A DNA stretch of 64,000 bases from assembly GCA_016178015.1 (NCBI GenBank), contig JACOUB010000032.1, forward strand, positions 33,340 to 97,339. The letters run 5' to 3'. The translations under genes were made by a program, and so were the position numbers. The notes under the pieces are model-generated. The model was not told where the DNA came from. It did no database searches and saw only the letters and a program-made list of their open reading frames with translations. Source of the stretch: Methylocystis sp. (GTDB lineage Bacteria; Pseudomonadota; Alphaproteobacteria; Rhizobiales; Beijerinckiaceae). Shown piece after piece: positions 24,741 to 59,987 of the stretch. Within the stretch, counting starts at the first letter, position 1. Each line of letters starts with the position of its first letter.

Positions 24741-25853
24741 ATGGGAGCCTTCGCCGCCGGTCCAGCGCGTGCTGCGCTTTCGGTCGAGAACCCGATGGGC
24801 ACCGACGGCTTCGAGTTCGTCGAATACGCGCATCCCGAGCCCGACAAACTCGGCGCTCTGTTCGAGCTGATGGGATTTAGCGCCGTGGCGCGGCATCGCT
24901 CGAAGCGCGTCGCCCTCTATCGTCAGGGTGACGTGAATTACGTCGTCAACGCCGAGCCCGACAGCTTCGCCGCCGGTTTCGCGAAAGCCCACGGACCTTG
25001 CGTATGCGCCATGGGCTTTCGCGTCGCCGACGCCGCGTACGCCTTTGAACGGGCGGTAGCGATGGGCGCGCAGCCGGTCTCGACCAAGGTCGGCCCGATG
25101 GAGCTCAACATCCCGGCGATCGAGGGCGTCGGCGGGGCGCTCATTTATTTCGTCGATCGCTATGGCGCCAAAGGCTCGATCTGGGACGTGGATTTCCGCT
25201 GGACGGCCGAGCGCGATCCAAAGCCCGAGGGCGCCGGCCTTTCCTACATCGACCATTTGACCCACAACGTTTATCGCGGCCACATGGACAGCTTGGCGGA
25301 GTGGTACAAGCGCTTCTTCAATTTCCGCCAGATCCGTTACTTCGACATCGAGGGCAAGCTCACCGGGCTGCATTCGCGCGCCATGACCAGCCCGTGCGGA
25401 AAGATACGCATCCCGATCAATGAAAGCGTCGACGACAACAGCCAGATCGAGGAGTATTTGCACGCCTATAAGGGTGAAGGCATTCAGCACATCGCCTGCG
25501 GATGCAGGAACATCTATGAGACGGTCGCCAAGCTGCGCCGGGATGGGCTCGAGTTCATGCCGGCGCCGCCGCACGCCTATTACGCCAAGGTCGACGAGCG
25601 CGTCCCCGGGCATGGCGAGCCGATCGATAAGCTCGAGGAGCTCGGCATTCTGATCGACGGCGAGGGAGTGGTCGGCGGCGGCGCGACCAAGGTGTTGCTG
25701 CAAATCTTCTCCAAGACCGTGATCGGCCCAATCTTCTTCGAGTTCATCGAACGCAAGGGCGACGAAGGTTTTGGCGAAGGCAATTTTCGCGCCCTGTTCG
25801 TATCGATCGAGGACGATCAGGTTCGCCGCGGCGTGCTGAAGGCTGCGGAGTGA
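24741..25853 (+). CDS. hppD: 4-hydroxyphenylpyruvate dioxygenase
   Basis: A 370-residue two-domain VOC enzyme that makes homogentisate from 4-hydroxyphenylpyruvate. Iron ligands are His in YIDHLTHNV, His in GIQHIACGC, and Glu in IFFEFIERKG. The C-terminal GFGEGNFRALFVSIE is the family gate. AAGGAGGG precedes the ATG at 24741. It is the first gene of a co-directional set with hmgA and fahA; a family D repeat separates it from hmgA. Confidence 0.95.
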   Translation: MGAFAAGPARAALSVENPMGTDGFEFVEYAHPEPDKLGALFELMGFSAVARHRSKRVALYRQGDVNYVVNAEPDSFAAGFAKAHGPCVCAMGFRVADAAYAFERAVAMGAQPVSTKVGPMELNIPAIEGVGGALIYFVDRYGAKGSIWDVDFRWTAERDPKPEGAGLSYIDHLTHNVYRGHMDSLAEWYKRFFNFRQIRYFDIEGKLTGLHSRAMTSPCGKIRIPINESVDDNSQIEEYLHAYKGEGIQHIACGCRNIYETVAKLRRDGLEFMPAPPHAYYAKVDERVPGHGEPIDKLEELGILIDGEGVVGGGATKVLLQIFSKTVIGPIFFEFIERKGDEGFGEGNFRALFVSIEDDQVRRGVLKAAE

Positions 25854-31216: not shown

Positions 31217-32614
31217 TTACGCGCCGAATGCGGCCGGGGTTTCACCCAGCGCAAAATGCGCGGTGAAATGACGAAGAAACGGCGCCTGTCTGGTGATCCG
31301 ATAGGGGAGGATGGCGTCGCGCCGGCGCCAGACGAGATCGAGCACTTCGATGACGTAGTCGAAATGGCTTTGCGTATAGACGCGGCGCGGGAAGGCGAGC
31401 CGCACCAATTCGCGCGGCGCCGCCGTTTCCTCGCTCGCGCCTTCCAAGCGGCGGCCGAACATGACGCTGCCGAGCTCCACGGCGCGAACGCCGCCCTCGA
31501 GATACAATGCGTTGACGAGCCCGATGCCGGGATAATCGCTCGGCTCTAGATGCGGGCAGAACGCCGCCGCGTCGATGAACACCGCATGGCCGCCGGCCGG
31601 GCGCACGATCGGGACGCCGCGCGCAATGAGGCTGGAGGCCATATATTCCACGGTGGCATGGCGGTAGCGCTGGTAGTCATATTCCAACGCTTCCTTGAGC
31701 CCGACGGCGATGGCTTCCAGGTCCCGCCCGGCGAGCCCGCCATAGGTGGGAAAGCCTTCGGTCAGGATCAGCAGGTTGCGGAAGTCTTCGGCCCATTGAT
31801 CGTCATGGCAGCCGAAAAAACCGCCGATATTCGCCAGACCGTCCTTCTTGGCGCTCATCGTCGCCGCATCGGCGAGCTGGAACATTTCGTTAGCGATGTC
31901 CATGAGGCTGTGGTCGGCGAAGCCCGGCTCGTATTCCTTGATGAAATAAGAGTTCTCGGCATAGCGGCAGGCGTCGATGACGAGAGGAATGCGATGTTTG
32001 CTGAGCAGTTGCTTGACCGCTCTGATATTTTCCATGGAAACCGGCTGACCGCCGCCGGCGTTGTTCGTCACCGTAATCATGCAGAAAGGAATGTTATTTG
32101 AGCCTTTGGTTTTGATGATCTGTTCGAGCCTGGCGAGATCCATATTCCCTTTAAATCGCAGCTCGGAATAAATGTCTTGGCCTTCTGGCGTGAGCACATC
32201 CAGAGCCTTGGCGCCGACATATTCGATATTGGCGCGGGTGGTGTCGAAATGGCTGTTGTTGGGAACGATGTCGCCTGCTTTGAGGCGCGTCGCGGCGAGA
32301 ATGCGCTCGGCGGCTCGGCCTTGATGGGTGGGGAAGATATGCTTGAAGCCGGTGATCTCGCGCACCGTTTTTTCAAAGCGACGCCAAGACATGCTTCCCG
32401 CATAGCTTTCGTCGCCAAGCATGAGCGCGGCCCATTGCCGCTCCGACATCGCGCCCGTGCCGCTGTCGGTCAAAAGATCGATGGTGATGTCTTCGGCGTC
32501 GAGCAGAAACACGTTGTTGTGCGCCGCCGCCAGCCGCGCTACGCGATGGCTGCGCGTGGTGATGGGCAACGCTTCGGTCATCTTGATGCGGAACGGCTCG
32601 ATGATCGTGTGCAT
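31217..32614 (-). CDS. tnaA: Tryptophanase family beta-eliminating lyase
   Basis: A 465-residue PLP enzyme of the tryptophanase/tyrosine phenol-lyase family. PLP Lys is in MSAKKDGLANIGG; other shared blocks are LLTDSGTGAMS, FPTHQGRAAERIL and GGHAVFIDA. Substrate-deciding positions favour tryptophanase: HFDTTRA has Asp where tyrosine phenol-lyase has Thr, AVELG lacks its Arg, and the C-terminal LRHFTAHF has the tryptophanase His. The expected reaction gives indole, pyruvate and ammonia. Start ATG ending at 32614; weak ribosome site. No TnaC-like leader was seen. Confidence 0.8.
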   Translation of the reverse strand: MHTIIEPFRIKMTEALPITTRSHRVARLAAAHNNVFLLDAEDITIDLLTDSGTGAMSERQWAALMLGDESYAGSMSWRRFEKTVREITGFKHIFPTHQGRAAERILAATRLKAGDIVPNNSHFDTTRANIEYVGAKALDVLTPEGQDIYSELRFKGNMDLARLEQIIKTKGSNNIPFCMITVTNNAGGGQPVSMENIRAVKQLLSKHRIPLVIDACRYAENSYFIKEYEPGFADHSLMDIANEMFQLADAATMSAKKDGLANIGGFFGCHDDQWAEDFRNLLILTEGFPTYGGLAGRDLEAIAVGLKEALEYDYQRYRHATVEYMASSLIARGVPIVRPAGGHAVFIDAAAFCPHLEPSDYPGIGLVNALYLEGGVRAVELGSVMFGRRLEGASEETAAPRELVRLAFPRRVYTQSHFDYVIEVLDLVWRRRDAILPYRITRQAPFLRHFTAHFALGETPAAFGA

Positions 32615-32635
32615 GAGGCGAGTCTCGGGCGTTCT

Positions 32636-32752
32636 CCTTCTCCCGCTTGCGGGAGAAGGTGGCGCGCGAATGCGCGACGGATGAGGGCGGGCGCCGCTAC
32701 GCGAGCACAACGGCCCTCACCCGACCCAGCTTCGCGGGAGAAGGGAACGCGC
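32636..32752. repeat. Intergenic palindromic repeat, family C, copy 2
   Basis: CTTCTCCCGCTTGCGGGAG, GGATGAGGGC, GCCCTCACCCG and GCGGGAGAAGGG units. It lies 21 bp upstream of the tnaA start, next to the cloverleaf element at 32778. Confidence 0.75.
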
Positions 32753-32777
32753 GAAGCGATCAAGCGCAGACCGTATC

Positions 32778-33163
32778 ATACCATCTCCGGGTGATCAGTT
32801 CGCACGTTTCCCCTGTCGCGCCGGGAACGGGCCGGCGGATGCATATTGGGCGCGGCGTTTGCCCCATCGTCCATCGCCCGTCAAACCGCTTGCGTCGCTG
32901 CGCTTTGCAAGCGGTTCCTTCACTTCGTTACGGCCCTTCGGGTGACCGGCGATGGCCGATGGGGCATGTTGGCAATCGTTCCCTTTGGTGAATTTGCCGC
33001 GCTGGAAGCGCAGCAAGTTCACCAAAGGGAACGGATGCACCTGTGCGCCATCCGCAGGGCTCGTCACCCGCAGGGGCGAAGCGCAGCGGAGCAGTCGCGC
33101 AGCGACTTGACGAGGCCTGCGGATGGCGCGACCGCCTGCGAACTGATCACCCGGAGATGGTAT
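32778..33163. repeat. 386-bp cloverleaf of nested inverted repeats
   Basis: The outer stem is a perfect 27-bp inverted repeat (32778-32804 with 33137-33163; it contains CCATCTCCGGGTGATCAG). Inside are three arms: 32861-32883 with 32943-32965 (21 of 23 pairs, carrying an inner perfect 10-bp hairpin 32884-32893/32907-32916); 32977-32992 with 33018-33033 (16 perfect pairs, extended inward by a further near-perfect 10 bp); and 33045-33066 with 33108-33129 (21 of 22). No open frame of note. It starts 164 bp upstream of the tnaA start and ends exactly at the coaA stop codon. Function unknown. Confidence 0.88.
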
Positions 33164-34128
33164 CACAGCTTCCGCAAGGCGACTTCCTCGATGCGGTGAT
33201 CGGCGCTCTTGGTCAGAATGAGGCTGGCGCGCGGGCGCGTCGGGGAGATGTTCTGACGCAGATTCTCGAGGTTGATGCGCCGCCAAATGTCGCTGGCCAC
33301 GCGGACCGACTCGTCGTCGCCAAGATCGGCGTATTTGCGAAAGTACGAGCGCGGATCGCGGAAGGCCGTCTGGCGCAGCCGCTGAAACCGCTCGATGAAC
33401 CACGTCTCGAGTATGTCCTCGCTGGCGTGCAGATAGACCGAGAAATCGAAGAAATCCGACACAAAAGGAATCTCGCGCCCGTCGCGCGGCGGTCGGTTCG
33501 GCAGGAGAACATTGACGCCCTCGACGATCAGAATGTCGGGACGATCGACGATGGAGCTCTCGCCTTCCACCACGTCATAGGTAAGATGCGAATAGACGGG
33601 CGCCGCGACATTGCGCTGGCCGGCCTTCACATCGGAGAGAAAGCGCAGCAAGCCGCGATTGTCGTAGCTTTCGGGAAAGCCTTTCTTGTCCATAAGCCCG
33701 TCACGCTCGAGCACGCTGTTCGGCAGCAGAAATCCGTCGGTCGTGACGAGTTCGACCTTGGGCGTGTTGGGCCAGCGCGACAGCAGCGCCTTCAGGAGGC
33801 GCGCGGTCGTCGATTTGCCGACCGCGACCGATCCGGCGACGCCGATGATGTAAGGCGTCTTGCCGTCCTCGGCGCCCAGGAACCGCTGCGTCGCCTTGTA
33901 GAGACCTTGCGTCGCCGCGACATAGAGCGCCAACAGGCGCGACAGCGGCAGATAGATTTCGATGACCTCCTCGAGCGAGATTGGATCATCAAGCGATTTG
34001 AGCCTGGTCAGATCATTCGAGGTCAAGGTGAGCGGCGTATCGGCGCGCAGCGTGGCCCATTCGGCCCGCGTGAAGCGGCGATAGGGGGAGAGGATGGCCG
34101 CGCCCGGCGCAAGGGATTCGGCGATCAT
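33163..34128 (-). CDS. coaA: Type I pantothenate kinase
   Basis: A 321-residue CoaA that phosphorylates pantothenate, the first step of coenzyme A synthesis. P-loop [17 protein letters not shown] is at about 95-111; [19 protein letters not shown] and [10 protein letters not shown] follow, with DFSVYLHA later. Full length. The stop codon at 33163-33165 touches the right arm of the cloverleaf element. It overlaps hisE by four bases, the usual his-coaA arrangement in Hyphomicrobiales. Confidence 0.95.
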
Positions 34129-59696: not shown

Positions 59697-59808
59697 TTCC
59701 CTCTCCCCGCAAGGCTACGGCGATCACGGAAATGATTCTCGCGAGGCGGCGCGGCGCCGCCTCCTCTCCCCGCTTGCGGGGAGAGGTGAGGTGAGGGGCT
59801 AGGCGATT
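59697..59808. repeat. Intergenic palindromic repeat, family D, copy 3
   Basis: CTCTCCCCGCAAGG at the left, and CTCTCCCCGCTTGCGGGGAG with GTGAGGTGAGGGG at the right. It lies in the 578-bp gap (59464-60041) before the acyl-CoA dehydrogenase. Confidence 0.72.
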
Positions 59809-59937
59809 GGCCACGGTCGTCAAATCATCGCATCGCAACGCGGTCGGCGTCACCATGCAGAATACTTTGATTTTCCATTATGTTTCCGGCATTCGTGATG
59901 TGTCGCCGCTGCTTGTGCTCTTAAAGCGTTGCGCTAA

Positions 59938-59987
59938 TCCCCCGGCCCCTCACCCAACCTCTCCCCGCAAGCGGGGAGAGGGGCGCG
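59938..59987. repeat. Intergenic palindromic repeat, family D, copy 4
   Basis: CCCCTCACCCAACCTCTCCC then GCAAGCGGGGAGAGG: a half element, just before the acyl-CoA dehydrogenase gene. Confidence 0.72.

What the first reader, a model, noticed from the sequence alone, without database searches (positions are those of the whole stretch)
32778..33163. 386-bp cloverleaf of nested inverted repeats between tnaA and coaA
A perfect 27-bp outer stem encloses three separate arms (21/23, 16 perfect plus extension, and 21/22 pairs), each with its own loop, and one arm carries a further perfect 10-bp hairpin. This is far more ordered than the usual REP pairs in the same genome. The right outer arm stops exactly at the coaA stop codon. 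It could be a mobile non-coding element, a large structured RNA, a fold-back terminator, or a protein-bound DNA structure. I recognise no known family in it.
Basis: seen in the sequence. Interest (0 to 1): 0.75.

Follow-up and report, generated by a model that had tools for sequence, protein, structure and literature searches.

The report
Jumping cloverleaf carrying plasmid hairpins
A 384-base stretch between two genes is one of seven complete copies of a cloverleaf-folding DNA element in this bacterium; it is likely moved by the enzyme of a jumping gene that relatives carry, and its two side arms belong to the same hairpin family that sits next to anti-restriction genes on many plasmids.

Summary
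The cloverleaf is one copy of a dispersed element: 7 complete copies, 9 partial places and 3 of a sister type in the 2.8-Mb genome. It spans 32779-33162; the TCA on its right is the intact coaA stop codon. Its ends match IS630-family insertion sequences of relatives: 23 of 25 bases with one in the same family, preceded by the same T-N-A; no such transposase was found in the own genome. Another copy has an empty site in 9 of 9 relatives. So it is most likely an IS630-type MITE. The perfect outer stem is peculiar to this copy; the inner arms keep pairing through compensatory changes. The surprise is the cargo: arms 1 and 3 are facing copies of a 59-nt hairpin that on plasmids lies mostly just upstream of ArdC-type anti-restriction genes. 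A model built only from plasmid hairpins gives just these two significant hits in 64 kb (E 5.5e-10, 3.2e-7; next 0.37). Rfam has no match. What the hairpin does (ssDNA signal or RNA leader) is inferred, not shown.

The parts
32776..32778 (.). TCA, left copy of the 3-bp flanking direct repeat (putative target-site duplication)
32779..32805 (+). left terminal inverted repeat, IS630-type end
   Evidence: match to IS630-family ends
32860..32966 (+). arm 1, long stem with internal hairpin
32875..32951 (+). plasmid-type hairpin motif in arm 1 (model R1, 44.2 bits, E 5.5e-10)
32973..33037 (.). arm 2, central hairpin; 16-bp perfect stem 32977-32992/33018-33033
   Evidence: covariation over 18 copies from two genera
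33045..33129 (-). arm 3, long stem with internal hairpin
33057..33117 (-). second plasmid-type hairpin motif, facing the first (34.4 bits, E 3.2e-7)
33136..33162 (-). right terminal inverted repeat, IS630-type end (23 of 25 bases as in the G142 insertion sequence)
33163..33165 (.). TCA, right flanking repeat, identical with the coaA stop codon (TGA on - strand)
   Evidence: 7 of 9 relatives' coaA also end in TGA
33163..34128 (-). coaA (PRK/uridine kinase domain), ends at the element

Best explanation
The feature is one of seven complete copies of a 365-384-bp repeat whose ends match those of IS630-family insertion sequences in related genomes and whose interior is two facing copies of a plasmid-type hairpin motif around a third hairpin, and it is likely a non-autonomous MITE moved in trans by an IS630-type transposase, with arms predicted to act as folded single-strand-DNA signals taken over from conjugative plasmids. 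Shown: the copies, their common ends, the match of these ends to IS630-family elements of relatives, short flanking repeats, one empty site, the relation of arms 1 and 3 to the plasmid motif, and pairing kept through compensatory changes. Inferred: transposition by that enzyme (absent or not found in this genome), descent of the arms from a plasmid or integrative element, and the ssDNA role. On this reading insertion right behind coaA kept the stop codon because TCA stands on both sides.
For: Copies and ends. IS630 link: a multicopy sequence at 4 contig places of G142 (same family) ends in TACCATTTCCGGGTGATCAGCTCGC, 23 of 25 as in the window element, preceded by TGA, TGA, TTA, TCA, and reads inward into a transposase C-terminus (annotated relatives: IS630 family transposase). 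In G005 (same genus) a full-size element with like ends (14-18 of 25; random 25-mers median 8, 99.9th percentile 15) has TGA on both sides and scores as IS630 transposase (NF033545, 119.5 bits, cut-off 100). Empty site: 9 of 9 relatives match the joined flanks of copy L007, 8 read across the junction. Arms 1 and 3 are the only significant hits of plasmid-only model R1 in 64 kb; the 20 best hits in the own genome all lie in this family and its sister type. R1 hits per genome: own 18, G036 12, the other 11 of 13 positive genomes 1-4 (100 searched); class-wide 4 of 114 other genomes, 1 each. Motif - central hairpin - facing motif recurs in G036. Central arm: 97.9% of cells paired, 37 double changes against 11.5 in shuffles. 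Arms 1/3: 104 against 32.9. Plasmid motif upstream of ArdC-type genes in 19 of 29 opened loci.
Against: The own genome has no match to the 53-aa transposase tail at E 0.001, no PF01609, and two PF13340 fragments whose surroundings match the ends at no more than 13 of 20. The G005 transposase reads in two frames. Flanking repeats fit no single rule: direct TCA/TGA in 6 of 8 two-ended copies, inverted in L002, TCA/TCC in L003, and 6 bp or more in L005, L006 and L007; the TA duplication that I recall for IS630 fits only the 5 of 8 copies with TA at both ends. In the central arm the number of pairs changed on both sides (8 of 16) is not beyond shuffles (69 of 500 reach it). The plasmid hairpins were collected by BLAST with element sequence, so R1 was selected for the shared core and its E-values on the arms are optimistic (they are rough anyway); stem pairing and gene context were not selected for. 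No promoter-like site in the element. In R388 the motif is reversed relative to the next gene. Ends like these were not found around the G036 arms. No relative has the beta-lyase gene within about 1.5 kb of coaA, so there is no direct empty site for this copy.
Confidence: 0.68

Rival explanations
1. The arms work as RNA: a transcribed structured RNA (sRNA or leader) that has been copied around, and a leader in front of ArdC genes on plasmids.
For: Strong fold on both strands, covariation in the arms, motif mostly on the same strand as the gene downstream, in most cases about 20-130 bp before it.
Against: No Rfam match; G-T mismatches (17) not clearly commoner than A-C (10); no promoter-like site in the window copy; copies lie in both orientations beside different genes.
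Confidence: 0.2
2. An ordinary mosaic of REP-like palindromic repeats without a plasmid link; the shared core is convergence of hairpins.
For: Other palindromic repeats adjoin (about 32633-32757); short and deleted forms exist.
Against: Seven copies keep full order and the same ends; the ends match IS630-family elements; 87 of 100 genomes have no R1 hit at E 1e-4 (stricter filters); conserved unpaired linker and position before ArdC genes on plasmids.
Confidence: 0.07
3. Spread by recombination or gene conversion rather than transposition; the flanking TCA/TGA is a preferred breakpoint.
For: Variable flanking repeats; no transposase found in the own genome.
Against: Common ends with unique flanks, IS630-type ends in relatives, clean empty site.
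Confidence: 0.05

Closest known systems
MITEs of the IS630 family (bacterial miniature inverted-repeat transposable elements)
   Same: short repeat, terminal inverted repeats matching an IS630-family element of relatives, short flanking repeats, several dispersed copies, folds back
   Different: carries three conserved arms, two of them plasmid-type hairpins facing each other; no partner transposase found in the own genome; flanking repeats follow no single rule
Frpo/ssi single-stranded-DNA promoters of conjugative plasmids (PMC11541004: passages seen)
   Same: hairpins near leading-region, anti-defence genes of conjugative elements; the plasmid motif here sits before ArdC-type genes
   Different: no -35/-10 consensus in the window element; sequence relation not tested; here in several chromosomal copies
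Rhizobial intergenic mosaic elements and REP/BIME/ERIC-type repeats (recalled; one search listing)
   Same: dispersed intergenic palindromic repeats
   Different: no sequence comparison was made; size and arrangement recalled as different

Membership tests
IS630-type MITE | terminal inverted repeats shared by copies | tested here: met
IS630-type MITE | same ends as an autonomous IS630-family element | tested here: met
   in relatives: G142 23 of 25 bases, G005 and G008 14-19 of 25; none found in the own genome (tail of the transposase only)
IS630-type MITE | fixed target-site duplication (TA for IS630, recalled) | tested here: inconclusive
   TA at both ends in 5 of 8, direct TCA/TGA in 6 of 8, longer in 3
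IS630-type MITE | insertion into a site that is empty in relatives | tested here: met
   one copy (L007), 9 of 9 relatives; other copies not tested
IS630-type MITE | no coding capacity | not tested
   ORFs listed; coding potential across copies not measured
Frpo-type ssDNA promoter | hairpin carrying -35 and -10 elements | tested here: not met
   0 promoter-like sites in 32500-33300; plasmid copies not scanned
Frpo-type ssDNA promoter | transcription from single-stranded DNA | not testable with these tools
   needs in vitro transcription
Known structured RNA (Rfam 15) | match above gathering score | tested here: not met
   window; 16 loci; permissive searches
Intrinsic terminator | GC stem followed by T run | tested here: not met

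The most novel reading that the evidence does not exclude
A transposon that has captured and spreads plasmid entry signals: an IS630-type MITE made of two head-to-head copies of the hairpin that conjugative plasmids keep in front of their anti-restriction genes, working as a portable single-strand start signal (promoter or priming site), so that transposons and plasmids trade one and the same folded-DNA switch.
Probability: 0.22. Interest if true: 0.85.

Novelty: new variant of a known kind. Interest (0 to 1): 0.62.

Why it matters
It ties a chromosomal MITE to a hairpin in front of ArdC, DUF736 and SLOG genes on plasmids of at least two alphaproteobacterial orders, also present in the model plasmid R388. 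That hairpin matches no Rfam family, and I saw no description of it in the listings of the paper searches (open-licence papers only). If it is a single-strand signal, it would show how these plasmids switch on anti-restriction genes on entry and how such a signal can become cargo of a jumping element; R388 makes this testable in laboratory strains.

Tried and rejected
Rfam, gathering and permissive: SRP RNA elsewhere and sub-threshold matches, mostly miRNA-like hairpins. Terminator or promoter reading: nothing found. Partner transposase in the own genome: PF01609 absent, PF13340 two fragments without matching ends, IS630 tail no match; other transposase families were not searched. End-repeat search outside the genome: 19 of 148 other genomes have a 2-mismatch hit; of the fetched loci, G142's four are IS630-type ends, and in the 21 others I recognised no transposase next to the hit; one of these (L069, G136) has the same TTA-TACG form and stays unresolved. 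The 10 exact hits in genome contigs lack the element's terminal bases. Two weak own-genome hits (C17, C25) lie beside other repeats. Phages: no match. Plasmids hold no DNA match to the G142 end. Direct empty site behind coaA: none (the lyase search was run in a wrong frame and was repeated).

Rows dropped: L113 was left out of the model after it misaligned; L135, L136, L140 were left out as near-duplicates; L008, L009, L011, L012, L015 have one end only and L027 and the C31 copy have decayed ends, so they are not among the 8 two-ended copies. The central-arm count used 8 own copies and 10 of 12 G036 copies; L005, L006, L008 of the own genome and L204, L205 of G036 were not entered. G007 was trimmed badly in my script, so 8, not 9, relatives were read across the junction.

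Full report
What is there. Folding energies are 13-15 standard deviations below shuffles on either strand. Among perfect inverted repeats of at least 16 bp within 1-kb spans of the window it is the longest.

It is a dispersed family. A search of the window's own genome (2.81 Mb, 63 contigs) lists 49 matching places, many of them one copy matched on both strands. By my count they are 7 complete copies (L001-L007), 9 partial places (C35, C40, C41 at contig ends, which may be pieces of one copy; C7 twice, C50, C60, C31, C19; a 28-bp match on C6 left out), and 3 places of a sister type with different arm sequences (L010, L013, L014). In 100 relatives (own genome counted) only short pieces match by sequence, in 5 genomes besides the own.

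Ends and neighbours. Aligned copies share ends. In the window the element is 32779-33162, with TCA on both sides; the right TCA is the stop codon of coaA, and 7 of 9 relatives' coaA genes end in the same TGA codon. Of 8 two-ended copies, 6 have the same TCA or TGA on both sides, one has it inverted, one has TCA/TCC. In three of the 6 the direct repeat runs on for 6 bp or more. TA stands at both ends in 5 of 8. Neither rule fits all. At L007, between two ABC-permease genes, all 9 relatives of the genus match the joined flanks without the element; 8 were read across the junction, an ATGA overlap of stop and start. A DUF2165 gene ends at the edge of L006.

The IS630 link. A pattern search with the end repeat had given 2-mismatch hits in 19 of 148 other genomes of the family. 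Four of them, in G142, lie 155-173 bases from contig ends, as a multicopy insertion sequence would. They read T-N-A, then TACCATTTCCGGGTGATCAGCTCGC, 23 of 25 bases as in the window; by chance about 0.003 such matches are expected in 1.4 billion positions. Inward they encode a 53-aa transposase tail, whose annotated relatives on Methylocystis plasmids are called IS630 family transposase or transposase (55-59% identity). The tail occurs in 6 of 149 genomes of the family and not in the own genome. In G005, of the window's own genus, a whole element of about 1.17 kb has like ends and TGA on both sides; its gene reads in two frames, and the pieces score as IS630 transposase, 119.5 bits (above the cut-off of 100) and 69.7 bits (below it), with a DDE_3 domain. 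A G008 copy has like ends with TCA and TGA, that is inverted. So the ends of the window element are those of an IS630-type family.

Structure under change. The outer stem is perfect only in the window copy. The inner arms are kept. For the central arm, 18 sequences from this genome (8) and from a second genus, G036 (10), give 97.9% paired cells and 37 double-changed cells against 11.5 in shuffles; 8 of 16 pairs changed on both sides, which 69 of 500 shuffles reach. For arms 1/3, 33 hits (32 distinct) give 92.6% paired and 104 double-changed cells against 32.9, on an alignment fitted to the structure and so leaning towards it. G-T and A-C mismatches are 10 and 5 in the central arm, 4 and 2 in arms 1/3, and 3 and 3 on plasmids, so nothing points clearly to RNA rather than DNA.

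The plasmid link. A DNA search of plasmids with the element gave 5 records matching its core, and a 55-nt composite core query gave 50. Ten plasmid hairpins gave model R1. In the window R1 has two significant hits, arm 1 on the + strand (44.2 bits, E 5.5e-10) and arm 3 on the - strand (34.4 bits, E 3.2e-7); the next is 0.37. In the own genome the 20 best hits are all in this family or its sister type; the 21st (E 0.0024) lies at least 36 bp before a DUF736 gene. Caveat: the plasmid sequences were found with element sequence, so the core itself was selected; pairing of the stems and gene context were not.

Plasmid context. I opened 29 plasmid loci: 22 from the first two searches and 7 from a spread listing of 60 out of 430 records that match the motif region of pHH2-227. 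Downstream on the same strand: ArdC-type (zincin-like metallopeptidase) in 19 (16 annotated, 3 by my translation, one of them short), DUF736 in 3, DUF2493/SLOG in 2 (one only by resemblance of my translation), others 5 (hypothetical genes in Methylorubrum, Methylobacterium and Phaeobacter, one reversed before a nuclease gene, one with nothing annotated). R1 scores at some of these are weak (L113 and L114 E 0.011, L132 E 0.12 at the DUF736 gene, though a strong hit, E 4.5e-13, lies before its ArdC-type gene). Many loci are near-duplicates, so these are not independent. In the 13.4 kb of R388 scanned there is one strong copy (59.9 bits, E 4.2e-15), reversed relative to the next gene.

Distribution. 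Among 100 genomes 13, the own counted, have R1 hits at E 1e-4: 18 in the own genome, 12 in G036, 1-4 in the other eleven. Of the 19 hits in those eleven, 8 precede ArdC-type genes (Pfam checked for 6, the other two look nearly identical), 3 precede SLOG genes, and 8 were not resolved. In a class-wide draw of 115 genomes, 4 besides the own have one each. So the motif is a scattered plasmid-type feature, amplified in two of the genera sampled.

Second genus. In G036 the order arm 1 motif - central hairpin - arm 3 recurs. The facing motif scores at E below 0.02 in 4 of 12 copies (L206, L208, L203, L200) and is visible in the alignment of more. Of 7 G036 copies examined, none has an outer repeat like the one in the window; one (L201) has a 25-nt, 76% pair around the arms. 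The conserved unit is thus the three arms; IS630-type ends were seen on it only in this genome.

Mechanism. Most likely a non-autonomous element moved by an IS630-type transposase in trans, now lost from or not found in this genome. ArdC of R388 is a ssDNA-binding anti-restriction protein needed in the recipient (PMC7213743: title, start of abstract and passages seen), and leading-region genes can be driven by folded ssDNA promoters (PMC11541004: passages seen). This makes a single-strand signal the best guess for the hairpin, but the element shows no promoter consensus, so this step is inferred.

Literature. Eight paper searches showed, in their listings, no description of this hairpin or element; only open-licence papers are held.

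Noticed in passing
window 32633-32757 (approximate): A second palindromic repeat (GGGAGAAGG...GGATGAGGGC type) adjoins the element on the left; similar sequence lies beside L003, L004 and L012.
   Followed up: no
window 59763-59981: 25-bp perfect inverted repeat spanning 219 bp, made of CCTCTCCCCGC-type repeat halves.
   Followed up: no
L211 4939-4998 (R388 25438-25497): The IncW plasmid R388 carries the hairpin motif (59.9 bits) before a nuclease-like gene, in reversed orientation.
   Followed up: partly
L163 1501-1570 (G000 contig C33): Own genome has a DUF736 gene with a weak copy of the motif at least 36 bp upstream; a DUF1353 gene lies about 3 kb on.
   Followed up: partly
L005, L006, L007 element ends: Flanking direct repeats longer than 3 bp that run into what is element end in other copies; not explained by a fixed-length duplication.
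   Followed up: partly
L175, L186, L191, L194 (G029): Four single motif hits on one 5.35-Mb contig with no ArdC, DUF736 or SLOG gene recognised downstream.
   Followed up: no
L069 (G136), reverse strand 1495: TTA followed by TACGACCTCCGGCTGATCGGTTCGC, an IS630-type end form without a recognised transposase or opposite end.
   Followed up: partly
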